From assembly GCA_021413725.1 (NCBI GenBank), contig JAIOPU010000060.1:1-34184 (forward strand): a DNA stretch of 34,184 nucleotides. Reading direction: 5' to 3'. The DNA is from Armatimonadota bacterium (GTDB lineage: Bacteria > Armatimonadota > Fimbriimonadia > Fimbriimonadales > Fimbriimonadaceae). This document shows, piece after piece, positions 1-34,184 of this stretch. The notes below the pieces were generated by a model. That model was given only the letters and a program-made list of their open reading frames with translations, had not been told where the DNA came from and did not search any database. How positions within the stretch are numbered: position 1 is the stretch's first letter; every line of letters starts with the position of its first letter. A program made the position numbers and the translations under genes.

Positions 1-1422
1 CGCCTGTCCGCCGACCGCAGAGCCGATTTTCACGATCTCGCCCAAGGAACGGCGAGCTTCATAGTAGTCTCCGACTTCCTCGTGAAGCATAGATTCACCC
101 AAAAGTAGCCAGGGAAGTATCCGTCCCGCGCCGTTGGCCTCGAAGAGGCGGCGTGCGCGTTGAAGATTTTCAGCAGCGACATCGATCTTCCCTTCAAAAA
201 TAAGAGGATCAAGGCTCGCCATCAACTGTTGCGCAAGCATCGCAGAAGTCTCCAAGTATTCGGAGCGCTCCGCGTGCGCGCGGTGTATCTTGCGACTCTC
301 TTCGACTCGCCCCACGTGTTGCAGGACCACGGCGAGTTGTTGCTCGAATTCAAACGCAATTTCGGGTCTTTTAGTCTGCCGCGCAAATGCAAGTGAATCC
401 TCAGCAAACGTAACCGCCTTGCCAAAATCGCCGCGCGACAAATGTCCATAAGCCAAAGCCCCACCCAATCGGGCGGCGACCATCGGCTCACCCATCGCCA
501 CCGCTTGCTCAATCGATCTCACGGCATCTTCGGATTCGTTGGTCAATCTTCCGGCCATTACAGTTAGATACACATGTTGAGCTTTCACCAAGCGACGTTC
601 GCTAGACTCGGTGGGATTCACCGCTAAACTTCTCCGATGAAAATCACGGGCTGCCTCTACCGGCATGCTCAGCCACTGACTCTGTGTGGCTACTAACATT
701 GAAAGAGCGTCCGCCGGGTTTCGGTCCAAAAGCCACTCGGCTGCAGTGAGGAGAGGGTGGCTTTCGTAGGTGCTGACCTCGGGTCCGATGTTCGAAACCG
801 TTCCCATCTCGCGGATGACTTTTATTCGGTAGGCATCAGCGGTGGCAAAAGCCTTGGCGCGTTGGCCACTCGCGTTCAAGTACTTTACGCGGAGGGCCGC
901 CGCATCTTCGTTCCAAGGATCAATCGCGCAAGCGCGTTCGATCAACTCCAGCCCCCCTGCCCGATCGCCCGCTTCCCACGCTTGCTCTCCACACGATACT
1001 GCACTCTCGCACGCAATATTTCTCAACTCAAGGCGCGTCTCGATGACCCATTCCTGGTCCAGACCTGGCATGAATTCACCGCGATAGGTCGTATGGTCAT
1101 CTAACGTTAACCAATCGCATTCAATCTTCCCTTCGGGGATAGAAACGTAATCTCGGCTGGCTTCAAAATGAGGAAAGACCTTGCGCAAAACCACGAGCGC
1201 GTTTCGCAAACTGTCGAGAGCAGCTTTGGAAGTGCAACCCGTCCAAATCAACCCAGCCACCTCCGCGCGCGCGAGGTTCTCCCCCGCACGAGAGGAGACA
1301 TAGGCCAAAGCCGCGAGCGCGTTTTTCGCAGAAATCGGCACCGGAATTCCATCAGCATTGAGGAGTTCCATCCTGCCCAAGAGATTGAGTCTCCAGGGTC
1401 TCGTTTCCGAACTTGCGACCAT
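1..1422 (-). CDS. SARP/BTAD-type transcriptional regulator with TPR-like region (3' end outside window)
   Basis: The frame is open from an ATG at 1422 to the window edge, giving 474 visible codons with no stop; the C-terminus is missing. Residues about 10-85 look like a winged-helix OmpR/SARP-type DNA-binding domain (LNLLGRMELLNADG, then SRAGENLARAEVAGLIW and a LDSLRNALVVLRKVF recognition region). Residues about 100-205 match a bacterial transcriptional activator domain: acidic WL.L..Y.GEF..G, then helical pairs with GLELIERACAIDPWNEDA. The rest is helical and rich in Ala and Leu, consistent with TPR repeats. Such proteins are cytosolic DNA-binding activators. The target is unknown; the divergent PEP-CTERM gene is the nearest candidate. 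The start is supported by a consensus -10 seven bases upstream, suggesting a leaderless mRNA. Confidence 0.85.
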   Translation of the reverse strand, partial: MVASSETRPWRLNLLGRMELLNADGIPVPISAKNALAALAYVSSRAGENLARAEVAGLIWTGCTSKAALDSLRNALVVLRKVFPHFEASRDYVSIPEGKIECDWLTLDDHTTYRGEFMPGLDQEWVIETRLELRNIACESAVSCGEQAWEAGDRAGGLELIERACAIDPWNEDAAALRVKYLNASGQRAKAFATADAYRIKVIREMGTVSNIGPEVSTYESHPLLTAAEWLLDRNPADALSMLVATQSQWLSMPVEAARDFHRRSLAVNPTESSERRLVKAQHVYLTVMAGRLTNESEDAVRSIEQAVAMGEPMVAARLGGALAYGHLSRGDFGKAVTFAEDSLAFARQTKRPEIAFEFEQQLAVVLQHVGRVEESRKIHRAHAERSEYLETSAMLAQQLMASLDPLIFEGKIDVAAENLQRARRLFEANGAGRILPWLLLGESMLHEEVGDYYEARRSLGEIVKIGSAVGGQA

Positions 1423-2463: not shown

Positions 2464-4182
2464 TTAGGCGGGACCGTATTGCGCTTCGTGCAAGCGCTGA
2501 TAAACTCCGGCGGCACTGACTAAGTCTTCGTGCCGCCCTTGTTCCGCAACGCCGGTCTCATCCACCACAACGATACGATCGGCGTTTTGTATGGTCGCCA
2601 AACGATGCGCAATCACCAGCGTCGTCCTTCCTAAAGAAAGCTCGGCGAGCGATGCTTGGATCAAGCGTTCTGTTTCGGTATCTAGAGCAGACGTAGCCTC
2701 ATCCAAGATCAAGATAGGCGGGTTCTTCAGAAACATTCTCGCGATCGCCATCCTCTGCTTCTGTCCACCCGAAAGCTTAACGCCCCGCTCACCGGTCAGA
2801 GTGTCCAGACCCTCCGGCAGTTGTTCGATCATCTCAAAGAGTCGCGCTCGCTTCGCCGCGTCCATGATCTCATCGTCCGTTGCGTCAAGCCTTCCGTAGG
2901 CGATATTCTGCCGAATCGTCCCCGCGAACAAGAACACGTCCTGCTGAACAATCCCGATGTTCTTTCGCAAAGAAGCCAGCGTCATATCCCGAATGTCGAT
3001 TCCATCGACCGTGATTCGTCCCGAGTCCAAGTCGTAAAAACGCGGCAACAGAGAGCAAAGCGTCGTTTTTCCCGCCCCGCTTGGCCCGACGAATGCCACC
3101 GTTTCTCCCGCCTTTAGGTGCAAATTGATGTCCCGAAGCACCGTCTTGTGTTCGTCGTAACCGAAAGTTGCCGACTCAAAGACAATGTCCCCGCGTAATG
3201 TTCCGACCTCGACTGCGCCCGGGAGATCGGCGATATCCGGTTCGGTGTCGAGCAATTCGGTATAGCGCTTGAACCCCGCAATACCCTTGGGATAGGTCTC
3301 CAACACGGCGTTGATCTTCTCGACCGGGCGGAAAAAGACATTCACCAAGAGCAAGAAGCCCATGAATCCGCCGACGGTGAGTTGGTTATGAAGGACAAAG
3401 TACGCCCCAGCCACCATAACGGAAAGTTGAACAAGACGCATCGTCATGTAACTCAGCGACATGCTCATCGACATGAGCCGATAGGCATCCAATTTGGTCT
3501 CGCGATACAAACCATTGTCCAAGGCGAAAAGCTCTCGCTCGTGATCCTCGTTTGCAAAAGCCTGCACGACCCTGATTCCGCCGACGCTTTCCTGGATGCG
3601 GTTATTGAACTCTCCAACTCGGCCGAATAAAATCCGCATATTGCGGGTCATCGCCCGTCCATATCGGGATGAAATCCACACCATCGGGGGAACAACCGCC
3701 CCTGTGATCAGAGCAAGTTTCATATTGATTCCAAACATCAGCACGAACGCACCGACAAAAGTCATCACCGCGATGAACGCATCCTCTGGCCCGTGATGTG
3801 CAACCTCGCCGACGTCCTCCAAATCCTTAGTCACCCGCGCGACAAGGTGTCCGGTTTTCTGATTGTCATAGAACCTGAACGAGAGTTTTTGAAGGTGGTC
3901 AAAGATCTTTCGTCGCATCTCCGTCTCAATCGCAATCCCGAGCACGTGCCCCCAATAATTGACCACATATTGCAATCCGGTGTTGAGAACATAGATGGCG
4001 AGCAGGCCAAGAGTGGCGGCGATGATGAGTCCCCAGTTCTCGCTGGGAAGGAGACGATCTACAAAAGCCTTCACCGCGAGTGGAAAGGCGAGTTCCAGCA
4101 GTCCAGAAACGACGGCGGACGAAAAATCTAGGATAAACAACCGTCGGTGAGGACGATAGTACGAAAAGAAGCGTTTAAGCAT
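2464..4182 (-). CDS. MsbA-like ABC exporter, fused permease and ATPase
   Basis: The protein has 572 residues, the usual length for a homodimeric type IV ABC half-transporter. The N-terminal transmembrane domain (about 15-310) has six likely helices and the intracellular coupling segment FRFYDNQKTGHLVARVTKDLE. The ATPase has Walker A GPSGAGKT (366-373), a Q-loop at IVQQDVFLF (411-419), signature LSGGQ (470-474), Walker B ILILDE (490-495), a D-loop SALD and the H-loop His526. All catalytic residues are present, so it should be active. The family moves lipids, lipid A precursors, drugs or peptides across the inner membrane; the substrate cannot be read from sequence. It stands alone, convergent with a PEP-CTERM gene and divergent from a PilZ-like gene. 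Confidence 0.93.
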   Translation of the reverse strand: MLKRFFSYYRPHRRLFILDFSSAVVSGLLELAFPLAVKAFVDRLLPSENWGLIIAATLGLLAIYVLNTGLQYVVNYWGHVLGIAIETEMRRKIFDHLQKLSFRFYDNQKTGHLVARVTKDLEDVGEVAHHGPEDAFIAVMTFVGAFVLMFGINMKLALITGAVVPPMVWISSRYGRAMTRNMRILFGRVGEFNNRIQESVGGIRVVQAFANEDHERELFALDNGLYRETKLDAYRLMSMSMSLSYMTMRLVQLSVMVAGAYFVLHNQLTVGGFMGFLLLVNVFFRPVEKINAVLETYPKGIAGFKRYTELLDTEPDIADLPGAVEVGTLRGDIVFESATFGYDEHKTVLRDINLHLKAGETVAFVGPSGAGKTTLCSLLPRFYDLDSGRITVDGIDIRDMTLASLRKNIGIVQQDVFLFAGTIRQNIAYGRLDATDDEIMDAAKRARLFEMIEQLPEGLDTLTGERGVKLSGGQKQRMAIARMFLKNPPILILDEATSALDTETERLIQASLAELSLGRTTLVIAHRLATIQNADRIVVVDETGVAEQGRHEDLVSAAGVYQRLHEAQYGPA

Positions 4183-4457: not shown

Positions 4458-4985
4458 ATGAAAACAACCTCCTCCTGGGCGGTTGAAATCACGGAAACCA
4501 GTTTGGTCTTGTCTCAAACGGACTCGAATGAGCTGAAAGTTGGGGCGCAAGTGATCATTGAAGTGTTTGGCCAGAAGAACAATCTCTTGGCCCACGGAGT
4601 TTTAACCGCGGTCACTCTCGATTCACTGGTCATTGCGGTTCGCACTCCGTTCGCTCTGCACCCCCCTACCGAACAGGCACGAGCATCCATGGTTCGCTTA
4701 TCGGCGACGGTGAATCCTAATGGTTCAAGCACGATTTGCAATCTGATGGATGTCTCACTCGAAGGCTGCGCGTTCGAAGGTCCGCTAGATTATGAGAGAG
4801 GTCAGGTGATTCCCATCGTGCTTCACACCCCCGCGGGCGACATTTCCGGGGTCTTTACGGTCCGAAATTGCCGTCCCAAGGATTTCACCGGTTCGGTTTA
4901 CCGAACGGGTGGAACTTTGGAGATCGTTGATCGAATTGCTGCCGCACGCTGGGCGAAAGTGCTGGCGGAAAATATCTGCGCTTAG
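4458..4985 (+). CDS. PilZ-like domain protein
   Basis: A protein of 175 residues from ATG 4458; an in-frame ATG at 4383 would add 25 residues, and neither start has a clear Shine-Dalgarno site. The C-terminal half contains LMDVSLEGCAFEGPLDYERG followed by beta-strand-like IPIVLHTPAGDISGVFTVRNCR. This resembles the D/NxSxxG half of a PilZ (cyclic-di-GMP receptor) domain. The N-terminal half (VGAQVIIEVFGQ, HGVLTAV) resembles the beta-barrel domain often found ahead of PilZ. The RxxxR motif that binds cyclic-di-GMP is not evident, so binding is doubtful. No operon partner is seen; the 21-bp array lies just downstream. The family assignment is tentative. Confidence 0.55.
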   Translation: MKTTSSWAVEITETSLVLSQTDSNELKVGAQVIIEVFGQKNNLLAHGVLTAVTLDSLVIAVRTPFALHPPTEQARASMVRLSATVNPNGSSTICNLMDVSLEGCAFEGPLDYERGQVIPIVLHTPAGDISGVFTVRNCRPKDFTGSVYRTGGTLEIVDRIAAARWAKVLAENICA

Positions 4986-9758: not shown

Positions 9759-10841
9759 ATGAAGAAAATTACTCTTTTATTATTCGCTACGTTACTACTT
9801 ACACCCACACAGGGTGGAGCCAATACGTACTCCGACAACTTCAATGATGGCGCCAAGAATCCGGCACTATGGTCGGTAAACACCGTCGGTGAGGTCGCCG
9901 CGACAGAACAGAACGGACGACTTGAACTTTTCACCTCAGGCTGGGCAATGGGGAACTTCTCCGCCGAGTTCTTGGGCGTACCCCGTCTTGTCGGCGACTT
10001 CGATATCAAGTTTGACTTCGACCATATTCTCTGGCCCAGTAACAACGGTATTCGAACGGGAATCAGTGTTGGAGTCGGGGGTTACGGGTACACGCTTGAA
10101 CGAACCTGCATGGGAACATGGGGCGGCGAGTCTATCCTCAGCGACGTCAACGGCAATCTGACGGTCTTGCCGTACGAGGCAACAACGGGTGCCTTGCGAC
10201 TCGTTCGCGTCGGCAACGTGATGACTGGTTATTACTATTCCGGCGGATGGCATGTCGTGAGTTCCGTCAACGCTCCCATTGAGGAAATGTCGTTCAAACT
10301 TTGGTCTTGGTCTGGAGATCAATTCTTCGGTCACCAAAATTCAGTCGCGACGTTCGACAACTTTGTCGCGGTCGATTCTGCCCAAACCCAGGCGACCCTG
10401 GCGGGCAAGATCAATCTGACGGACTACGTTGGTGATTTGACGGTTCCGGAACTAAGATTCACACTCAGAAACACCAACGGAGTCATCATGGAAGACTGGA
10501 CGCAGAAGTTGGGTGCTACGGGCACCTTCAGCCATCCTTCCTTGGTGCCCCTGGACGGCAACGGCTACATTCTGACTATCCGTGGCTCGCACTGGCTTGG
10601 AAAAGCCATGAAACTGGACGCTTCCAATGCGGATAGCATTGCGGTGGCGTTAGTCAACGGAGACGCGAACGGAGACAACGTGATTGACCTCACGGACTAT
10701 ACGATCGTGGCGACCGCGTTCAACGCGCTACCTAGTTCAGCAAACTGGGATGCGCGAGCCGACTTCAACGGCGATGAAGTCATTGACCTCACTGATTACA
10801 CAGTCGTGGTCACGAACTTCAACGCGATTGGGGATTACTAG
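9759..10841 (+). CDS. Exported protein with C-terminal dockerin-like calcium-binding repeats
   Basis: A protein of 360 residues. It has a signal peptide (MKKITLLLFATLLLTPTQGGA), then residues about 25-205 with an LamG/concanavalin-like look (YSDNFNDGAKNPALWSV, FDIKFDFDHILWPSNNG, ATFDNFVAVDS). A beta-type region (about 210-295; TLRNTNGVIMEDWTQKLGATG) resembles carboxypeptidase-regulatory-like repeats. Residues 300-357 hold two EF-like motifs, DANGDNVIDLTDY and DFNGDEVIDLTDY, 30 or so residues apart. Type I dockerin modules have such Ca-binding duplications and dock to cohesins, but in non-cellulosomal bacteria the partner is usually unknown. No PEP-CTERM tail is present. A strong terminator follows directly. 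Confidence 0.75.
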   Translation: MKKITLLLFATLLLTPTQGGANTYSDNFNDGAKNPALWSVNTVGEVAATEQNGRLELFTSGWAMGNFSAEFLGVPRLVGDFDIKFDFDHILWPSNNGIRTGISVGVGGYGYTLERTCMGTWGGESILSDVNGNLTVLPYEATTGALRLVRVGNVMTGYYYSGGWHVVSSVNAPIEEMSFKLWSWSGDQFFGHQNSVATFDNFVAVDSAQTQATLAGKINLTDYVGDLTVPELRFTLRNTNGVIMEDWTQKLGATGTFSHPSLVPLDGNGYILTIRGSHWLGKAMKLDASNADSIAVALVNGDANGDNVIDLTDYTIVATAFNALPSSANWDARADFNGDEVIDLTDYTVVVTNFNAIGDY

Positions 10842-23505: not shown

Positions 23506-26500
23506 TTACAGCTGCAACAGATGTTTCAGCGAGTCTTCGTGCCCGGGTTGCAACTCTAGCACTCGCTCAAAGTGCGCTTTGGCAAGTTCGCTCTGTCCAC
23601 GCCTCAAGTGGAAGATGCCAAGGAAGTATGAGGCATCGGGGATGTTCCGGCTGGCGAGATGCCTGAGCCTTGGCTCGGCGAGGTGTTCGAGGTCGTGGTT
23701 CAGCATGAACTTCACGAGGTAGAGATGTGCATCGTCTCGGTGCTGGCATTCCGCAACCGCTGTTTCTAGGGCTCGAAGTGCGGCTGGTACACCATCGGTG
23801 GCGAGCAAGAATTTCTCGGTCATCGAAAGGTAGTTGGTTGAAATTCCTTCGACGCTTCGAACGTGCTGTGTCGCGTCTCGCGCGGCTTTATTATCGCCAC
23901 ATGCCAAAGCGGCGTCAAAAAGGGCAAAGGCTGACGGAGTGAAACCGGCTGATGAGGCAAGAGATTGTAACCAAAGTTCTTTGGCCCGGGGGTAATTACC
24001 AATTTGAGCATAGAGGGAGGCAAGATTGAACAGCGTCTTGTGTCCGACTATGGCAACATCGTAACTGGAGTAAAAGCCCGTCGTCTCCTCAGCGAAAATA
24101 GTCTCGTATGCTTGGATGGCTGCCTCAGTGTTCCCAAGCATGCTGTGGGTCATGCCAAGATGAAAGTAGAGTTCAGGGTCCCATCCGACGCGCTCAAGTC
24201 CTGCAACAAAAACGGGGATAGCTGCTTCTGGACTGATGGCTTCGCGAACACTAACGCCTTTGAGAGCATAGGCCTTGCGCAGGTGAGACTCGGCTCCCGT
24301 CGCCTTGGCGATGGAGTCGGTGAGCCACTGAATCGCTTGTTCGTGCTCACCCGTGAAATGAGCCGTCATACCAAGGTTAAACAGGACAAACGGGTGCTCT
24401 GGATTGTCGGCTAGGTCAAGTGCGAGCAGCTGACTGTCGCGCTCGCGCTTACGCTTTTGGCCGTCCTCCGAAGTGTCGTACCCGGAGTGATAGACCACCG
24501 CTTCGCACCGCGCGATGCGGCCGGGGTGCTCATTGAGGGCGGGTAGTATTTGCTCGTGGATGTGGAGGGAAAACTTAAGGCCGGGATAGTTGCGGAAGAG
24601 CTTGACGTGATCGACCCGGGTTCCCGAGTTCTCACCTTCATCGAGGAACTGCACCGGCACAACAAACCCATGCACGTCGGATGGCGCCTGGAGCGCGGCT
24701 TGGAGGATTGCTTCGCCTGAAGCCAGGGGCAATGTGTCATCGGCGTCTAGCCAAAATATCCAGTCTCCGGTGGCATAGCTTAAGGACTGGTTTCGCGCTA
24801 CGGAGAACGAGTTCTCCCACGGGTGCTCGTAGACTTGTGCACCGTGCGACCGTGCAATCGCGATGGTCTCATCTGTTGAGCCGGTGTCAATGATGATCGT
24901 CTCATAAAAGAAGGGAATGGCACTCTTAAGACAAGCATCAATGACTCTTTCTTCGTTTTTGACAATCATACAGAGCGAAATCCGCGCTTTTTTGGCCAGT
25001 TTGACAATTTGTTCACGGAGCTTCTCTGGCTTGCGAGCAGGATTAAACACAATGCGCTCACTGCTTGTTCCGGGAAGGCAGTTCACAAACCCAGTCTGCA
25101 GGTCTTCCTGCCACTTATGGTTAAACTTGCGGGAATTCTCTTCAAGGAGCCGCTGAGGCTGGGGGATCGCGTTGTGAATCGTCTTTGAGCCTACATGATG
25201 GACAAAGCTAGTCCCTGAGATGAGCATTTTGTACCCCGCGCGGCGAATGCGGTAGCAGAGGTCGTTATCTTCAAACATCCCAAGCCCAAAGCGCTCGTCG
25301 AATGCACCAACTTCGCTCAGCACACTCTGGCGCACGAGCAAGCAAAAGCCAACCAGCATATCAATCTCAATGTCGTCTTGCCCGAGGCTCGCAAAAAGGT
25401 CGGCATAGAGTCCGAGCCGGTCCAGATGTGTGTAGGTGATGCGAGTTGCCTGGAAGTGGCCCACATTATTGGAATATGGGCCGACGGCGGCGATACTGCC
25501 TGATGTTTCTAGCGAGCGAATGAGAGCACGCAGGGCAACCTCTGGCATGAACGCATCGCTATTGAGGAAGAGCACATAGTCCCCGGCGGCACATGCATAT
25601 CCCTGGTTCGAGGCTTTCGCGAATCCCAGATTAGCCTCATTTTCGATGAGGGTGACGAACGGAAAGGACTTCGCAACTTCTCTCGCGTTGTCGAGACTTG
25701 CATTGTCCACGACGATGACTTCCTTCAAGAGCGATGCAAACGGGGCTAGGGTTTGCAAGCATTCGGTGAGTTCTTCGGCGGCTCCGTAGACCGGAATGAC
25801 AATGGACATCTTTGAAAGGTCTGCCTCAATGGAGACGGGTTCGGCGGCCTTGAAGGTTGAAGCCAGAATCTCAGGCACGGGAATTCGCTCCGCCCAGCCG
25901 TAGGCTTCAGGGTGCGTCGGATGGAGGTTGTTGCTCATGGGGTCCATGTCCCAGCCTTTCCAGACCTTCGAGTACCAGTTCGGGACAAGTTCGTCTTTAT
26001 GACTCCATGTCCCCACCTTGCGACGAATCCGGCTATCGGAACCCGCATACGACATGTGGTGCAAGATGCCGTACTCCTCTCCAAGAACCAATGCTCGACC
26101 GCCAGAAAACTCACGCAAATACGTGTGCTCGACGGTGTGCAAATTCAAAAAGAGCATCGGGGTTCTGCGCTCCCTAGGGCGAATGACGAACTCTGGAGAC
26201 TTCCAGTACGTGTCGTTCTGCACGTAGACCCTGTCGGCAAGATCAGATTCGGCGAGTTTAAGAAGGGCCGTCAGTAGTTCGGGTTCAATGACTTCATCGG
26301 TGTCGGGAATGAGGCAGTGGGTGAAGCCGCGCTCTTTGAGGAGGGCATAGGCTTCACGTCGATGTATCCCTTCGTCAGTCCAATCTCCTTCAATGACGGT
26401 CAGTCTCAGCTTTTCGGCAAGGGCGATGGTCGCTTTGTAGTCTCCCTGGTCGGCGTTCCACGAAACGCGGCTGACAAACGCAAAGAGCTCACCTGCTCCT

Positions 26501-26571
26501 CGAAAGCTCTCGGCGGCGGCTTCAAAGAACTCAATATCATCATGGACTAGGAACGCAACCGCGACAGACAT
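23506..26571 (-). CDS. Three-domain glycosyltransferase with C-terminal TPR repeats
   Basis: A protein of 1021 residues from ATG 26571 (a GTG two codons earlier is possible). Domain 1 (about 5-240) is GT-A-like with LIPDTDEVIEPELL and a WSHK...PNWYSKVWKGWD segment. Domain 2 (about 257-490) is a family 2 transferase: MSIVIPVYGAAEEL, VVDNAS, YVLFLNSDAFM, MFEDNDLCYR. Domain 3 (about 533-710) is a second family 2 unit: SLCMIVKNEERVIDACL, IIDTGSTDETIAIAR, WIFWLDADD. Residues about 720-1021 form TPR repeats (LFNLGMTAHFTGEHEQAIQWL, LYFHLGMTHSMLGNTEAAIQ). All acidic metal sites look intact. It probably builds a surface glycan or glycosylates a protein, with TPRs binding partners. No other glycan genes flank it except possibly 26622-27332. 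Confidence 0.85.
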   Translation of the reverse strand: MSVAVAFLVHDDIEFFEAAAESFRGAGELFAFVSRVSWNADQGDYKATIALAEKLRLTVIEGDWTDEGIHRREAYALLKERGFTHCLIPDTDEVIEPELLTALLKLAESDLADRVYVQNDTYWKSPEFVIRPRERRTPMLFLNLHTVEHTYLREFSGGRALVLGEEYGILHHMSYAGSDSRIRRKVGTWSHKDELVPNWYSKVWKGWDMDPMSNNLHPTHPEAYGWAERIPVPEILASTFKAAEPVSIEADLSKMSIVIPVYGAAEELTECLQTLAPFASLLKEVIVVDNASLDNAREVAKSFPFVTLIENEANLGFAKASNQGYACAAGDYVLFLNSDAFMPEVALRALIRSLETSGSIAAVGPYSNNVGHFQATRITYTHLDRLGLYADLFASLGQDDIEIDMLVGFCLLVRQSVLSEVGAFDERFGLGMFEDNDLCYRIRRAGYKMLISGTSFVHHVGSKTIHNAIPQPQRLLEENSRKFNHKWQEDLQTGFVNCLPGTSSERIVFNPARKPEKLREQIVKLAKKARISLCMIVKNEERVIDACLKSAIPFFYETIIIDTGSTDETIAIARSHGAQVYEHPWENSFSVARNQSLSYATGDWIFWLDADDTLPLASGEAILQAALQAPSDVHGFVVPVQFLDEGENSGTRVDHVKLFRNYPGLKFSLHIHEQILPALNEHPGRIARCEAVVYHSGYDTSEDGQKRKRERDSQLLALDLADNPEHPFVLFNLGMTAHFTGEHEQAIQWLTDSIAKATGAESHLRKAYALKGVSVREAISPEAAIPVFVAGLERVGWDPELYFHLGMTHSMLGNTEAAIQAYETIFAEETTGFYSSYDVAIVGHKTLFNLASLYAQIGNYPRAKELWLQSLASSAGFTPSAFALFDAALACGDNKAARDATQHVRSVEGISTNYLSMTEKFLLATDGVPAALRALETAVAECQHRDDAHLYLVKFMLNHDLEHLAEPRLRHLASRNIPDASYFLGIFHLRRGQSELAKAHFERVLELQPGHEDSLKHLLQL

Positions 26572-26577
26572 TCCCAC

Positions 26578-26621: not shown

Positions 26622-27332
26622 GTGCAATCAAATCACCGCTTAACGCTAGAAACAAAGGTTTGGGAGAAGGACTGGCGACGCCTCATTCTCTTAGAGGAGT
26701 GCAAGCACATCTTCGAGCGTATTCTCACGCCTTGCCACCGGAGACTCCTCATCAACAATGTCGAAGATCCCAAAGCCGTGGCAGGCTACGCCGAAAAGCT
26801 CGTCGCGAAGGGAATTTTGGACGAGGTCGTCATCGTAGATTCTCATATTGAAGCCGCGCTCACGCATTTTAAGCTTTCAAAAGAGTCGTTAGGGATTGGT
26901 TTTGCCTACTCAGCGGCAGAACTTGTGGGAATTTTCACCTGCGAGACGGAGTACCTTGCCCACTTCGCGGGGGATTGCCGGATGCTCCACTACTCGCATT
27001 GGTGCGAAGATGGCATGAACACTTTAGCTGAAAATAACGATATAGCAGTGGTGAATCCCATTTGGAATGGTGACGTGCTTGAAGTTGAAAAAGAAGCTAC
27101 CGAAAGAGTAAGGAACTACTGTCTGGGTTACGGGTTTAGCGATCAGTGCTACCTTGTGCGGACGATGGACTTACTGAATGCCGATTTAACCCAGATTCAC
27201 CCCGATTCGAGGGGGTTTCCGGCCTACGGTGGGGAGCTTTTTGAAAAGCGCGTTGATGGGTGGATGCGAACCGAGGGACGCCTCCGAGCGACGGATTTGA
27301 CTGCAACCTACGTTCATGGAGGTCAGCTTTAG
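26622..27332 (+). CDS. Uncharacterised protein divergent from the glycosyltransferase
   Basis: A protein of 236 residues from GTG 26622, without a Shine-Dalgarno site; TAGCAT nine bases upstream could be a leaderless -10. The N-terminus reads VWEKDWRRLILLEECKHIFE, then CHRRLLINNVEDPKAVAGYA with a VIVDSHIEAALTHFKL segment. The middle contains YLAHFAGDCRMLHYSHWCED and DIAVVNPIWNGDVLEVEKEA, and the end has HPDSRGFPAYGGELFEKRVDGWM. The conserved-looking Asp, His and Trp residues suggest an enzyme, and it resembles a GT-A-type transferase in layout, but I cannot name a family. Only 50 bases separate it from the divergent glycosyltransferase start, so a joint role in glycan assembly is plausible. 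Confidence 0.6.
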   Translation: MQSNHRLTLETKVWEKDWRRLILLEECKHIFERILTPCHRRLLINNVEDPKAVAGYAEKLVAKGILDEVVIVDSHIEAALTHFKLSKESLGIGFAYSAAELVGIFTCETEYLAHFAGDCRMLHYSHWCEDGMNTLAENNDIAVVNPIWNGDVLEVEKEATERVRNYCLGYGFSDQCYLVRTMDLLNADLTQIHPDSRGFPAYGGELFEKRVDGWMRTEGRLRATDLTATYVHGGQL

Positions 27333-27873: not shown

Positions 27874-30800
27874 ATGAATCGTCATGTCCACCCGTCCTTT
27901 GAAGGAGTCTTCGACCCCTACTCTCCGCGCCCGGTCCCAACTACTGGTGAACTCTTTGTCGATCCTGAGATTAGCCTGAAGGCCAAGAAGTTCAATCTTG
28001 ACATCAGTTTCTACTACAGCAGTACAGCCACCAACTCGAACAAGGAGTTCGGCACGCAAAGGACAATTTCTCTTAAAGGAAGGGTCGTGTCCCATTCTGA
28101 TGGGGTTTATGTTGAGCGGGATAATTTTCTGAAGTATGCCTATGCGGTTTCGACGCAAGGTGGAGGAATCACCACCTACATGTCGGGGCAAACGGCCCAG
28201 GGTGTTCGGAATGGGCTGACCTTCAACGGAAGTAAGTTCACGGAAACAACGCCTTCTGGGTTTGTCTATGAGTACGATCACGCGGTAAGCGGCGCAAGCG
28301 CGCCAAGCCTATATCTCTTGACGGCCATGAAGGACGCTCAAGGCGTGACGCAGACCATTGCCTACGGAACCGGGGTCGAGGTCGATCTCATAAAGACCAT
28401 CACTGTCCCCGGTGGAAAAGTCGTTACCTTTAGTTACGTTGCAGGCGCAACGGTTTCGCTGCTGAGCACCATTGAGGATTGGAGCAATCGCCCGACCACG
28501 CTCCAATACGATGCAAACCGAAACCTAACTACATTGATGTCCCCAAGCGGATGCATCACCAAATACGGCTATGTTTTGACCAGCGGCCAGTATTTGATGA
28601 CGAGCATCGAAGACCCGTTTGGCTATCAGACGAACTATGCTTTCGATTCACGGGGGCGGGTGACGAGCATGACCGCAGGTGCGGGAACTTGGAACTACTC
28701 CTTTGCCAACCACTCAAGCACGATGACAAACCCAGCAGGCGGGATCACCTCGTACGCGATGGGAACGAATAATCGCCCCCTCACTGTGGAGTACCCCGCC
28801 GGATACGTGGTGACCTACGGCTACGATACGAATGGATTCATAAACCTTCAGCAAATGCCTCACGGCGATGTTTTGAGCATGGTTTTTGCGACCAATGGTC
28901 AGCCGCAGGTACAGCGCGATGCTCTCGGTAACGCCACTAGCTTCGGCTACGACGCGGCGGGCAACCTCGTCAGCGTCCTGGACGCCATGGGTGGGGTTGT
29001 GACGATGGCCTACAACGGCGACCGCACGATGGCCTCCCGGATGGACCAGCTCGGACGCGTCACGACGTGGACGTACAACGCCGATGGCACAACCAAAACA
29101 GTAACCGATCCGCGTGGGCTGGTGACTTCGATGGGCTACGACGCAACCGGAAATGTAGTTTCTGTGCAGTCCTCGTTTGGCGCGGTGACTACGCACGCTT
29201 ACGATACGCTCAATCGCCGAATCGCAACGACTGATCCTCTGGGTCGAACTACAACTACGGCGTACGACACGGGCGACCACGTCATTTCTACCACCAACGC
29301 GATGCTTGAAACGTCGCAGTACATTTGGAATGGTTGTCGCATGGTGGCGCAGGTCAATCCACTCAATCAACGGACTACCATAACCTACGACCGATTTGGC
29401 AATAAGTCCACCGTCATGGATGCCCTCGGCAACGTCGCCACGATGCAGTACAACGTCATAGGAGATTTGACGACGCTTATTGATGCTGCAGGCGGCGTTT
29501 CGACAATGGCCTACAATGCTGCGAGGCAGCTTCTCACGAGCTACAATCCGCTTGGTTTTGCGACCACGAGCATTTATGACACGAGTGGGCGGCGGGTTGC
29601 GACGCAGAATGCGCGGGGTTTTAGCACAACGAATACCCTTGATGCGCGGAGCAAGATCGTTTCGACTACCGATGCGCTCGGCAACATCACCGAATACGCC
29701 TACGACAATTTGGGCAGGCAAATAGAAGTTAAGACTCCGCTAGGTTTCCGCACGACTACGGTGTTTGACGCGGCTAGCCAGGTCATTGCCAATATCGATG
29801 CGCTAACCAATCGCACCACAACGAGCTACAACAAGGATGGTCAGCCGGTGACGATGATGGATGCCTTGGGCCGAATTTCGACGACGGTTTATGAGACTAA
29901 CAGCACGAGGCCGATTGCGGAAATTAGCCCGCTTGGGTTTACTCATACAGTTTCGTATAATTTGGCGAGCCAACCGGTAACGATGATGGACCCGGGTGGA
30001 AATATCTCCTCAACGGTCTATGACCTTGCTGGTCGCCAAATCGCTCGGGTGAATGCCATCGGTGGGCGCGTGACGACAAGTTACAACGCGGCGGGCCAAG
30101 TTGTCTCGATGGCAAATGAGCTCAACAAGGTGACGACATTCACGCTGGATGCGCTCGGCCGACAGATTGACGCGAAGAGTCCGCTGGGGAATGTGACGAG
30201 CAAGGTGTACGACAAACTGGGGCGACAGATTGCTTCGGTGGACGCCTTGGGCAACCGATTCACAACTTCTTATGACGCGGCAGGAAGGCCCGTGACGAGT
30301 ATTACCGCTCTCGGGTTTGTAACGACTAATACCTTTGACAAGAATTCAAATCTCACCGCGACTCAGAATCCACGCGGCTTCTTGACCACGCACAGCTACG
30401 ATGCGCTTGACCGGGTGGTGACTTCGATGGATGCTTTGAATACCATCACGAGCAATGTTTTTGACGCCGATGGGCGGCAGACGGTGATGGTGGATGCGCT
30501 TGGGGGCCGAATTACGATGGCCTACTCGAATCGCAATGAGATGATTGCCATCGGCAACCAACTTGGGCAGATAACCACCTACGCTTTTGATGCGGCAGGG
30601 CAGGCGAGTACTCGAAAGTTCGCCAATGGTGATGTTACAAGTTATGGCTTTGATGCAAATGGGCGGCTTGCAAGTACCTTGTATGCGGACGCGACTCGGG
30701 TGACCATGCAATACGACTCTCGTGGGAACAATACCACGATGCTTGATTCGACGGGAACCACAACGTTTGCCTTTGATGCGTTGAGTCGGACGGTTGGGAC

Positions 30801-32541
30801 GACAAGGCCGGGACCGTTTGTTCAAGCCTATACCTTTGATTCAGCGAGTCAAAGAACCCGTTTAGTAGACCCGAATACTGGGGTTACGACTTATGCGTTT
30901 GACGCTGATGGACGAGTCGTGAGCTTTATGGACCCAAGTACGAAGGTAACTACGATTGCCTACGATGTGCGGAACATGAAGACAACCACGACGTACCAAA
31001 GCGGACGGGTCCAGGCCTGGACGTTTGATGCGGACGGACGCAATACGGTGATTAGCGACAAGAATGGCGCTACTGTTCTTCAGTTGATGACGTATACCTT
31101 CGACAACAACAGTAACCGTGAGTCTGCGAGAGACTCAAATGGTTCGGTGACGACTTATTCCTTTGACGGTAAAGACCGCTTGACGCAGGACTTGACGACA
31201 GGAACTTCGGCGCATACGTACGACTATACGTTTGACTCCAGAGACAATTTGGTAACCAATAACGAGTCGGGGACGGTTGTGACGATGGCGTATGATGCCG
31301 CTTCCAGGCTGGTGACTTCGATCTCTGGTTCTTCAATTACGACTTACACGTTCGATGTCAATGGCAATATGACGAACGCGAATCAGGCCGGAACACGCAC
31401 AACGATGACCTTTGACAAGGAAAATCGATTGGCTTCGCATAACATCGGAGGCGGTAAATTCGGCTTGACCAACGTCTCTTACGACGGAATCGGTCGAAAG
31501 ACGAAGTCTCAGAAATCTGCAGATATTGTTGATTTTGTTTGGGATGATTGGAATCTGCTCGGCGGCAATTTTGCCCTCGTTCCATTCCCCGCACCGACAA
31601 TGTCTACTCTCCTCCACATTGTGGACGGACTGATGTTGGCGGAGACGGACGTATCTTCCGTTACCCGCACTGATTACCTTGTGGACTTCTTGGGTTCGAT
31701 CACAGGCCTCACCAATTCCTCCGCAGCGGTTTCTGGGACTCGTCGGTTTAAGCCGTACGGGCCGTTGCTTTCGGGAAGCGATGCGTCGGGTTGGACTGGG
31801 AATACGGGGAGTCGGTATACGTCTTTACTCTTTGCGGAACAATACAATAAGTATAGGCATTACTCAAGTACGAGTAAGCAATGGGTAACGCGAGACCCCA
31901 TTTGGCCTAGACAGTTAGCGTATGGTTATACCGGGGGGAACCCAGTTACCAAGATTGATCCGAGTGGGTTAACGGCGATAACATTTCCTGCTATAGGAAC
32001 TGCAATTGAATTCGTTGGAGGTACCGTAGTGGCAATTGGTGCGACCGTGGTCTGTTCTGTTTATGCGATTGGAACCTCGTGCTATCAAATTTGTACCTAT
32101 GATATAAACGATCCTTCAAGAGATGGTTACTTTACAGGTGCAGGTCGATGTGTGGCGAACTATTTTTATCCGCTACCCGTTGAATCATCACCTATGGATC
32201 GAGTGATACAAATTAGCCGCCTTCCCTATTGTCCGGCGAGAAAACCATTGCGCCCCGGGATTGAGCCTGATAACCCCTATTTCCCGCCCGTTCTGCCGAT
32301 CAACCCGAAAGGGCCTCCTGGATGCGAATTCTACGTGGTACCCTGCGCACCGATCATAACTGTAGATCCAGCAGGTATACACGGACCAGACCTCTGGATA
32401 ACGCACGGCTACGGAACATGCTACGGCGTTCATACGCATATTGTGTTTGGATATCGATTACCTCCATCGTGTGATTGCAAATATGGCAAACGGGTCCCTT
32501 TGACATGCTTCGGATTGTTTGTGCCCGGTCCAAGATTCTGA
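27874..32541 (+). CDS. RHS/YD-repeat protein with variable C-terminal tip (candidate toxin)
   Basis: A protein of 1555 residues. The N-terminal 200 (DPEISLKAKKFNLDISFYYS and on) resembles the DUF6531-like start of RHS shells. Residues about 200-1300 are dozens of YD repeats (G..TTYAYDALGR-type), which build a hollow beta-shell. The RHS core end is seen at LLFAEQYNKYRHYSSTSKQW, VTRDPIWP and KIDPSGL (to residue 1366). The tip is residues 1367-1555. It has a hydrophobic stretch (about 1380-1400), a Pro-rich linker and 11 Cys, ending HTHIVFGYRLPPSCDCKYGK and PLTCFGLFVPGPRF. RHS tips are usually toxins released inside the shell; this tip matches no toxin I know. No signal peptide is seen. A predicted immunity gene follows 11 bases later. 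Confidence 0.92.
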   Translation: MNRHVHPSFEGVFDPYSPRPVPTTGELFVDPEISLKAKKFNLDISFYYSSTATNSNKEFGTQRTISLKGRVVSHSDGVYVERDNFLKYAYAVSTQGGGITTYMSGQTAQGVRNGLTFNGSKFTETTPSGFVYEYDHAVSGASAPSLYLLTAMKDAQGVTQTIAYGTGVEVDLIKTITVPGGKVVTFSYVAGATVSLLSTIEDWSNRPTTLQYDANRNLTTLMSPSGCITKYGYVLTSGQYLMTSIEDPFGYQTNYAFDSRGRVTSMTAGAGTWNYSFANHSSTMTNPAGGITSYAMGTNNRPLTVEYPAGYVVTYGYDTNGFINLQQMPHGDVLSMVFATNGQPQVQRDALGNATSFGYDAAGNLVSVLDAMGGVVTMAYNGDRTMASRMDQLGRVTTWTYNADGTTKTVTDPRGLVTSMGYDATGNVVSVQSSFGAVTTHAYDTLNRRIATTDPLGRTTTTAYDTGDHVISTTNAMLETSQYIWNGCRMVAQVNPLNQRTTITYDRFGNKSTVMDALGNVATMQYNVIGDLTTLIDAAGGVSTMAYNAARQLLTSYNPLGFATTSIYDTSGRRVATQNARGFSTTNTLDARSKIVSTTDALGNITEYAYDNLGRQIEVKTPLGFRTTTVFDAASQVIANIDALTNRTTTSYNKDGQPVTMMDALGRISTTVYETNSTRPIAEISPLGFTHTVSYNLASQPVTMMDPGGNISSTVYDLAGRQIARVNAIGGRVTTSYNAAGQVVSMANELNKVTTFTLDALGRQIDAKSPLGNVTSKVYDKLGRQIASVDALGNRFTTSYDAAGRPVTSITALGFVTTNTFDKNSNLTATQNPRGFLTTHSYDALDRVVTSMDALNTITSNVFDADGRQTVMVDALGGRITMAYSNRNEMIAIGNQLGQITTYAFDAAGQASTRKFANGDVTSYGFDANGRLASTLYADATRVTMQYDSRGNNTTMLDSTGTTTFAFDALSRTVGTTRPGPFVQAYTFDSASQRTRLVDPNTGVTTYAFDADGRVVSFMDPSTKVTTIAYDVRNMKTTTTYQSGRVQAWTFDADGRNTVISDKNGATVLQLMTYTFDNNSNRESARDSNGSVTTYSFDGKDRLTQDLTTGTSAHTYDYTFDSRDNLVTNNESGTVVTMAYDAASRLVTSISGSSITTYTFDVNGNMTNANQAGTRTTMTFDKENRLASHNIGGGKFGLTNVSYDGIGRKTKSQKSADIVDFVWDDWNLLGGNFALVPFPAPTMSTLLHIVDGLMLAETDVSSVTRTDYLVDFLGSITGLTNSSAAVSGTRRFKPYGPLLSGSDASGWTGNTGSRYTSLLFAEQYNKYRHYSSTSKQWVTRDPIWPRQLAYGYTGGNPVTKIDPSGLTAITFPAIGTAIEFVGGTVVAIGATVVCSVYAIGTSCYQICTYDINDPSRDGYFTGAGRCVANYFYPLPVESSPMDRVIQISRLPYCPARKPLRPGIEPDNPYFPPVLPINPKGPPGCEFYVVPCAPIITVDPAGIHGPDLWITHGYGTCYGVHTHIVFGYRLPPSCDCKYGKRVPLTCFGLFVPGPRF

Positions 32542-32551
32542 AGAGGTCAAT

Positions 32552-33130
32552 GTGAATATTGATAAACAATTATATCGTGATTGTGTGGGGTTCGTCTCCT
32601 TCCCAAATTTCGGACAGCCGGTTGAATGGCCCCGCTACATGATGCTTAGTGGAGGCCCAGAACTCGCTGATCCAACTTCTTGTTTGAGCGGAATTTTCCT
32701 TTCTCTTTCCTCCGCTATGGTTGCCTCACCTACGAAGGAGATTGTTGCGTTGGCTGTGCCTAGTGCTATTACTTTCCTCCGATCCCTTGCACTGGGGCGG
32801 CAGTTAACGATCTCCAATGACTTCAACCAGCAACATGTTGACGAAGCAATCGAAACTTACGGTGGAGCTACTCCTTCCTTAGTAGAAGCGCATTGGCCTT
32901 TGTTAGGGTTCACGGTTGCGGACTGCTGGTTGGGAACATCTCAGTGGTTTTTTAATGCATCCTACCAGGAGTTTGAAATTGAACTAAATGAATCTGGATT
33001 GTTGAACGATGACTCGGATGCGCATATGGTAAGGACTATCATGGATTACACATCCCCTTATGATTCGCCGCACTACGTGATTGCAATGTATTTGGTTCAG
33101 AGAGCTGCGAAGAATGAAAGGGAGCGTTAA
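32552..33130 (+). CDS. Predicted immunity protein for the RHS tip
   Basis: A protein of 192 residues from GTG 32552. GAGG lies six bases upstream and the start is only 11 bases after the RHS stop, so both are probably on one transcript. The sequence is new to me: MNIDKQLYRDCVGFVSFPNF, GQPVEWPRYMMLSGGPELAD, then a hydrophobic CLSGIFLSLSSAMVASPTKE and an acidic C-terminal half (YQEFEIELNESGLLNDDSDA). A cytosolic protein with one possible membrane-facing helix fits. The position just behind a variable RHS tip is the usual place for the cognate immunity gene. No similarity supports this, only context. Base composition is more AT-rich than the RHS core, as expected for an exchanged cassette. Confidence 0.65.
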   Translation: MNIDKQLYRDCVGFVSFPNFGQPVEWPRYMMLSGGPELADPTSCLSGIFLSLSSAMVASPTKEIVALAVPSAITFLRSLALGRQLTISNDFNQQHVDEAIETYGGATPSLVEAHWPLLGFTVADCWLGTSQWFFNASYQEFEIELNESGLLNDDSDAHMVRTIMDYTSPYDSPHYVIAMYLVQRAAKNERER

Positions 33131-33149
33131 ATGGTCATTGGAGATTGTT

Positions 33150-34184
33150 CTGATGACCGCATGGTCACGACCATGAATGCTTTGGGCATATTTCGACTTC
33201 GGTCTATGACGCCGATGGCAGAAATACTGCTCTGGTGGACCCCGCCGGTGGGTTTACTACGATGGTGTATTCCAGTCGCAATGAGATGATTGGGATTGCC
33301 AATCCTCTGAACCAGCGGACGAGTTATACCTTTGATGCGGCGAGCCAGCGCACTCGACTTGTTGATCCGAACGGCGGGGTGACAACTTTTGCATTTGATG
33401 CGGATGGACGGATCGTGAGCACTATCGATCCGATTGCGAAAGTGACCACTATTGCTTACGATGCGCGGAATATGAAGACGACCACGACATATCAGAGTGG
33501 AAGGGTTCAAGCCTGGACCTTCGACGCTGATGGCCGCAATACGGTGATTAGTGACAAGAATGGGGTACCCGTTCTGCAGTTGATGACGTATACCTTTGAC
33601 AAGAACAGCAACCGTGAGTTGGTTCGGGATTCAAATGGGTCCATTACTACTTATGCCTTTGATGGAAAGGACCGGCTCACTCAGGATTTGACTACGGGGA
33701 CTTCGGCCCACACTTATGATTACACGTTTGACTCTCGTGACAACCTCATAACCAATAACGAGTCGGGGACGGTTGTGACGATGGCGTATGATGTAGCATC
33801 TCGGCTCGTGACTTCTATTTCTGGTGCTTCGGTGACGACCTACACGTTCGACGCGAATGGGAACATGACCAACGCGAACCAGGCAGGGACGCTGACCACG
33901 ATGACCTTTGACAAGGAGAACCGGGTTGGATCTCATACGAACGGCACTCTTATCACGATTACCTACGACGGAATGGGTCGAAAGCGGCAGTCTAGGGTGA
34001 GTAAATCGAGCTACACCAAGTATTGGTGGGATGGGTGGAATTTGCTGGGTGAGAGCACGGCGGTGGCAACCTTGAAGACGATGCCGACTTTGTATGACAT
34101 CGTGGATGGCGTAATGCTTGGCGAAGTGGACGTCCCCGGCAACACCCGCATGGATTACCTTGTGGACTTCTTGGGTTCGATCAC
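33150..34184 (+). pseudogene. Displaced second RHS C-terminal module, frameshifted, runs off the window
   Basis: From 33150 the DNA encodes RHS repeats closely related to residues about 845-1280 of the main RHS protein. The first part reads DDRMVTTMNALG in one frame, then ISTSVYDADGR in another; adding one C near 33187 rejoins them. From 33190 the frame is open to the window end, starting from no good codon (the frame has a TGATGA pair just upstream). Against the main gene, about 90% of residues match over 160 positions. About 80 residues present in the main gene are missing here. Such orphan RHS cores with an alternative tip are typical of RHS loci. It should contain a different tip beyond the window edge. 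Confidence 0.85.

What the first reader, a model, noticed from the sequence alone, without database searches (positions are those of the whole stretch)
31972..33130. New RHS C-terminal tip with Cys-rich end and adjacent immunity candidate
The 189-residue tip follows DPSGL and combines a hydrophobic helix, Pro-rich linker and 11 cysteines, matching no toxin known to me. A 192-residue gene with its own GAGG site starts 11 bases after the stop. This is the standard toxin/immunity arrangement with unknown members in both positions. The hydrophobic helix suggests membrane entry or a pore; the Cys-rich part may be disulfide-bonded or bind zinc.
Basis: partly seen in the sequence, partly recalled or inferred. 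Interest (0 to 1): 0.72.

Follow-up and report, generated by a model that had tools for sequence, protein, structure and literature searches.

The report
New Armatimonadota RHS toxin–immunity pair
A little-studied environmental bacterium carries a large toxin-delivery protein whose tip ends in a small cysteine- and histidine-rich domain of a previously unnamed family, followed by a gene of another unnamed family that probably protects its owner; the arrangement is well known, but these two families are new.

Summary
In detail: after DPSGL the RHS protein has a 189-aa tip (11 Cys), and a 192-aa GTG-start gene begins ten bases after its stop. Neither matches Pfam, NCBIfam, PHROGs or PDB sequences. 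Profile searches of all 291 held genomes of the phylum (Armatimonadota) found seven further copies of the tip's C-terminal ~65-aa core (invariant H137, C150, H154, C169, C179; HTH in most). In all eight loci a gene starts at or near the tip stop; seven of those eight belong to one partner family by leave-one-out profiles. The hydrophobic helix is not the toxin: the same segment precedes unrelated tips with unrelated downstream genes, while cores without it keep the partner family. That double dissociation makes the Cys/His core the likely toxin and the partner its immunity protein. All partners are acidic and soluble-looking, most cores basic, which favours a cytosolic, nucleic-acid-targeting enzyme over a pore; this step is inferred. 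Many partner homologues stand alone (orphan immunity). Structure prediction failed (pLDDT 30 and 40), so fold and chemistry stay open. Verdict: ordinary RHS polymorphic-toxin architecture with new toxin and immunity families.

The parts
27874..32541 (+). RHS/YD-repeat polymorphic toxin gene, 1555 aa
   Evidence: PF05593 E 7e-91, 20 stretches; Rhs_assc_core TIGR03696 35.2 bits, cut-off 32.5
31894..31971 (+). Putative C-terminal aspartyl autocleavage site: D of RDP (31894-31896) and NPVTKIDPSGL (31939-31971); fits PxxxxDPxGL, the two Asp 21 residues apart
   Evidence: sequence against the motif and catalytic Asp pair described in PMC8765631
31972..32538 (+). Tip, 189 aa, 11 Cys
32020..32178 (+). 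Hydrophobic, modular segment (CYEICTYxPGHPxGPFTGxG type), shared with unrelated tips; probable membrane-entry/pretoxin segment
   Evidence: profile A8 hit E 1.1e-21; unrelated tips behind it
32224..32343 (+). Pro-rich linker
   Evidence: sequence; poorly conserved in alignment
32344..32538 (+). Toxin core, 65 aa: invariant H137, C150, H154, C169, C179 of the tip; GxCxGxHTH
   Evidence: profile A9 hit 32344-32532 E 1.3e-23; leave-one-out 53.5 bits, best of 1000 shuffles 10.6; alignment
32542..32546 (+). Ribosome-binding site AGAGG of the partner
   Evidence: sequence
32552..33130 (+). Partner gene, 192 aa, GTG start: predicted immunity protein, net charge -12
   Evidence: leave-one-out 35.8 bits, best shuffle 7.7; charge
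33131..34184 (+). Displaced RHS core fragment without own start, 79% identical over 596 nt to the upstream RHS; runs off the contig, probably continuing into another tip/immunity cassette
   Evidence: blastn; open ORF 33235-34182

Best explanation
This is an RHS-delivered antibacterial toxin with its immunity gene. Proposed steps: the RHS repeats form a shell that holds the tip (known for RHS proteins, not shown here); an aspartyl self-cleavage after DPSGL frees the 189-aa tip (motif present, cleavage inferred); the hydrophobic GPxTGxG segment helps the tip reach or cross the target membrane (inferred from its modular sharing); the C-terminal 65-aa Cys/His core is the toxic domain (supported by the double dissociation); the 192-aa acidic soluble protein encoded directly downstream binds and blocks the core (linkage shown, binding inferred). 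The most likely activity is a cytosolic attack on nucleic acid, by a histidine-based RNase or a metal-dependent nuclease stabilised by zinc or disulfides; I put that last step at about 0.4.
For: Eight cores in seven genomes, each with a gene starting from about 25 nt before to some tens of nt after the tip stop. Seven of those eight partners belong to one family by leave-one-out profiles, 17.9-129 bits against shuffles of at most 8.7. Seven of eight cores beat 1000 shuffles in leave-one-out. Double dissociation: tips with the hydrophobic segment but another C-terminus (G034, G181, G046 C22 and C39, G192) have partners with no score or at most -1.0 bits, while cores lacking the segment (G100, G046 C83 and the G032 fragment) keep the partner family. 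Tip swapping on similar RHS cores in G046. Stand-alone partner homologues, including a 66% identical copy in the window's own genome. All 17 partners acidic (-7 to -20) and without a clear transmembrane helix; seven of eight cores basic. Motif for self-cleavage.
Against: No toxicity, binding or protection data. Structure predictions failed, so no fold supports an enzyme. The G057 partner (5.6 bits against best shuffle 6.9) and the G079 core (8.1 against 9.8) are not independently supported. Acidic partners are common among immunity proteins of many kinds, so charge is weak evidence for a nuclease; one core (G048 C4) is not basic. No type VI sheath gene in the window's genome or 100 relatives, so the export route is unknown.
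Confidence: 0.72

Rival explanations
1. Membrane-active toxin: the hydrophobic segment is the killing part (pore or depolariser) and the Cys/His core only stabilises or targets it.
For: Segment reaches Kyte-Doolittle 1.97 over 19 residues; glycine-zipper-like stretch in the G046 C83 tip; membrane-depolarising tips are known in polymorphic toxins (PMC12744356, PMC11630599).
Against: The segment sits before unrelated tips with unrelated partners, while the partner family follows the core even when the segment is missing; partners carry no clear transmembrane helix, whereas immunity to pore formers is usually membrane-bound (general knowledge).
Confidence: 0.1
2. The core is a peptidase or other metalloenzyme (JAB/JAMM-like HxH zinc site, or a Cys-His hydrolase) acting on a protein or the cell wall.
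For: HTH with an upstream invariant H and several Cys looks like a metal site; Tox-JAB-2 toxins have H[ST]H (PMC3482391).
Against: No Pfam hit for seven members even at E 10. The JAMM Ser and Asp after HxH are not conserved in relatives and there is no conserved Glu.
Confidence: 0.2
3. The pair is not an antagonistic system: the tip is a structural or adhesive Cys-rich end and the downstream gene is a folding helper.
For: Neighbouring unrelated tips of this RHS subtype are equally Cys-rich, so Cys-richness is a general trait; no toxicity data.
Against: Stand-alone partner genes in about nine genomes with no RHS tip next to them are hard to explain for a folding helper but fit orphan immunity (PMC3150448); tips and partners are swapped together.
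Confidence: 0.08

Closest known systems
RHS polymorphic toxin/immunity modules (Rhs-CT/RhsI of Dickeya dadantii 3937; PMC3150448)
   Same: RHS repeats, DPxGL junction, variable tip, small gene directly downstream, displaced cassettes with partial RHS core downstream, orphan immunity genes
   Different: Tip and immunity sequences belong to no family in the libraries searched; phylum Armatimonadota; no type VI sheath gene found
CdiA-CT modules with separate cytoplasm-entry and toxin domains (PMC9424206)
   Same: Exchangeable entry-type segment followed by an exchangeable toxic domain; immunity follows the toxic domain
   Different: RHS not CdiA; entry function of the segment here is inferred only; no sequence relation shown
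Tox-JAB-2 / DUF4329 RHS toxins (PMC3482391)
   Same: H[ST]H motif at the C-terminus of an RHS protein
   Different: No Pfam match; the Ser/Asp ligands and Glu are not conserved; core is short and Cys-rich

Membership tests
RHS polymorphic toxin system | RHS/YD repeats and Rhs-associated core | tested here: met
   PF05593 E 7e-91; TIGR03696 35.2 bits over cut-off 32.5
RHS polymorphic toxin system | PxxxxDPxGL junction with two aspartates about 22 residues apart | tested here: met
   NPVTKIDPSGL at 31939-31971; Asp 21 residues upstream; motif from PMC8765631
RHS polymorphic toxin system | Tip varies on similar RHS cores | tested here: met
   G046 carries three different tips on similar cores
RHS polymorphic toxin system | Immunity gene directly downstream, co-inherited with the toxic domain | tested here: met
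   the G057 partner is not independently supported
RHS polymorphic toxin system | Tip is toxic and partner protects | not testable with these tools
   needs an expression experiment
Any described toxin or immunity family (Pfam, NCBIfam, PHROGs) | Profile match of tip or partner | tested here: not met
   no match for several members, E up to 10 for Pfam and NCBIfam apart from single chance-level hits at 0.09-0.12
Tox-JAB / JAMM metallopeptidase | E, HxH, S, D ligands | tested here: not met
   HxH in seven of eight cores, S and D not conserved, no conserved E
Type VI-delivered RHS effector | Type VI sheath genes in the genome | tested here: not met
   VipA PF05591 in 0 of 101 genomes including its own, E. 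coli control positive; own genome is 88% complete
Pore-forming tip | Hydrophobic segment co-varies with the immunity gene | tested here: not met
   segment and partner dissociate

The most novel reading that the evidence does not exclude
The core is a new, very small toxin fold with its own active-site chemistry (H-C-H-C-C metal or Cys/His centre), confined to Armatimonadota, and its immunity family has spread as stand-alone defence genes through the phylum.
Probability: 0.2. Interest if true: 0.6.

Novelty: new member of a known kind. Interest (0 to 1): 0.42.

Why it matters
It adds a toxin-domain family and an immunity family, defined here by profiles and invariant residues, to the catalogue of bacterial warfare proteins, from a little-studied phylum in which RHS cores occur in 201 of 291 genomes. 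It also separates, by comparison alone, the part of the tip that the immunity protein follows (the Cys/His core) from the part that is shared delivery hardware, which makes the toxic domain directly testable as a 65-aa piece.

Tried and rejected
AlphaFold2 of the tip (3-row alignment, mean pLDDT 29.7) and of the partner (4-row, 40.1): too poor to compare folds, so no fold search was run. Profile searches against PDB sequences: nothing for partner or full tip; the core only gave aldehyde dehydrogenases at E 0.5, rejected as chance. Hits in G111 and G112 rejected: antisense to what reads as an RNA polymerase beta-subunit gene, no RHS. Hits of the core profile at E above 1e-3 in G247, G189, G190, G192, G124, G112 not accepted. 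Peptide-pattern scans of 84,980 named genomes returned only two relatives, both already known from the genome search; this is not proof of absence elsewhere, since patterns are strict. No plasmid match. Cys-richness as a hallmark of the toxin: rejected, because neighbouring unrelated tips of the same RHS subtype share it even though other RHS tips do not; the first of these samples is biased to loci found through this family. JAB/JAMM membership rejected.

Full report
Observation. The RHS ORF 27874-32541 ends in NPVTKIDPSGL, followed by 189 residues with 11 cysteines; a 192-aa ORF with AGAGG and a GTG start follows after ten bases. The RHS body gives 20 RHS-repeat stretches and an Rhs-associated core match just above the curated cut-off. 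Tip and partner match nothing in Pfam, NCBIfam or PHROGs, nor do seven members of each family at E up to 10 in Pfam and NCBIfam apart from single chance-level hits, nor PDB sequences.

Relatives. The window is contig C69 of a 3.13-Mb, 88% complete assembly. Protein search in 150 relatives found tips in G048 (two copies), G057 and G100; profiles over all 291 held genomes of the phylum added G032, G079 and G046. Read individually, the eight carry a C-terminal core with GxCxGxHTH or a close variant and later CxC and C; in alignment H137, C150, H154, C169 and C179 of the tip are invariant, and H156 is missing in G079 only. Leave-one-out profiles support seven of eight cores against 1000 shuffles; G079 is supported instead by its shared segment and partner. 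Damaged copies exist in G191 (in-frame stop) and G186 (segment and core in different frames).

Partner. In all eight loci a gene begins between about 25 nt before and some tens of nt after the tip stop, with ATGA-type overlap in G057 and G079. Leave-one-out profiles place seven of the eight in one family (17.9-129 bits; shuffles at most 8.7); the G057 partner stays below its best shuffle. The family also occurs without a neighbouring RHS tip in G197, G051, G081, G194, G064, G043, G070, G038 and G011, and as a 66% identical copy at the edge of contig C37 of the window's own genome. That is the pattern of orphan immunity genes described for CDI and Rhs systems (PMC3150448).

Which part is the toxin. 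The hydrophobic part of the tip is a separate module. A profile of it (A8) finds the same segment in RHS proteins of G034, G181, G192 and two of G046 whose C-termini are different. The genes behind those other tips do not belong to the partner family: highest -1.0 bits against 80 or more for members. Conversely G100 and G046 C83 have the core without that segment (0.3 and -2.5 bits) and keep the partner family, and G032 has only the core and partner, with no RHS beside it. The partner therefore follows the core, so the core is what it has to neutralise.

How it may work. The junction fits the PxxxxDPxGL self-cleavage motif, and an Asp 21 residues upstream matches the two catalytic aspartates of RhsA, 22 apart (PMC8765631). 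Cleavage would free the tip. The shared hydrophobic segment then resembles in role the entry domains of CdiA-CT toxins (PMC9424206), by analogy only. The core would act in the cytosol: the 17 partners are soluble-looking and acidic (-7 to -20) and seven of eight cores are basic, as with many nuclease/immunity pairs; Zhang et al. list several two-histidine RNase toxins (PMC3482391). A metallopeptidase or another hydrolase remains possible; JAB membership was tested and not met. No type VI sheath gene was found in the genome or 100 relatives, with a working control, so export is open.

Cysteines. In RHS tips met around this family Cys is 6.7% against 1.1% in the bodies (this automatic sample holds repeats and two non-RHS entries), while 24 tips of the phylum's best RHS cores have 1.2%. 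Most of the eleven cysteines are thus a trait of this RHS subtype, perhaps disulfides for passage outside the cell; only three are invariant in the core.

Limits. Structure predictions failed. Presence outside the phylum was tested only by strict peptide patterns and in plasmids. The contig ends in a displaced RHS core fragment, 79% identical over 596 nt to the upstream gene, so a further cassette probably lies beyond it. Toxicity and protection are untested.

Noticed in passing
window 33131-34184: Displaced RHS core fragment without start directly behind the partner gene, running off the contig: probably the start of another tip/immunity cassette.
   Followed up: partly
L123 (G000:C37) 3-524, minus strand: Second partner-family gene, 66% identical, without an RHS tip upstream and cut by the contig end: likely orphan immunity.
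   Followed up: partly
L122 (G032:C1:771000-777000) 2074-2311, 2791-3031, 4471-4710: Three copies of a 241-nt element with complementary ends (CGGGTGGCATGCATCG / CGATGCATGCCACCCG) flank small genes including the RHS-less core/partner pair; a few more partial copies elsewhere in that genome. MITE-like; could be how the pair moves.
   Followed up: partly
L039 (G191) and L041/L084 (G186): Damaged copies of the tip: in-frame stop within the core (G191), segment and core in different frames (G186).
   Followed up: partly
L045 6942-7838; L016 1668-2705; L018 994-2193; L017 645-1445: Further RHS cassettes next to family members with unrelated, mostly Cys-rich tips (up to 15 Cys in 173 aa), with their own downstream genes; no family assigned.
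   Followed up: no
L044 4605-5216 (same as L017 2047-2658): A second G057 partner-like gene lies behind a different tip and a small hydrophobic gene, suggesting tandem immunity genes.
   Followed up: no
phylum-wide: Rhs-associated core in 201 of 291 Armatimonadota genomes, often as arrays of about 300-aa cassettes, although no type VI sheath gene was found in the 101 closest ones.
   Followed up: partly
window 9759-10841 and 26622-27332: ORF with a type I dockerin domain (E 2e-6), and a 236-aa ORF just before the RHS gene with no Pfam match.
   Followed up: no
window 23506-26577, minus strand: 1023-aa protein combining family-2 glycosyltransferase and TPR repeats next to the RHS gene.
   Followed up: no
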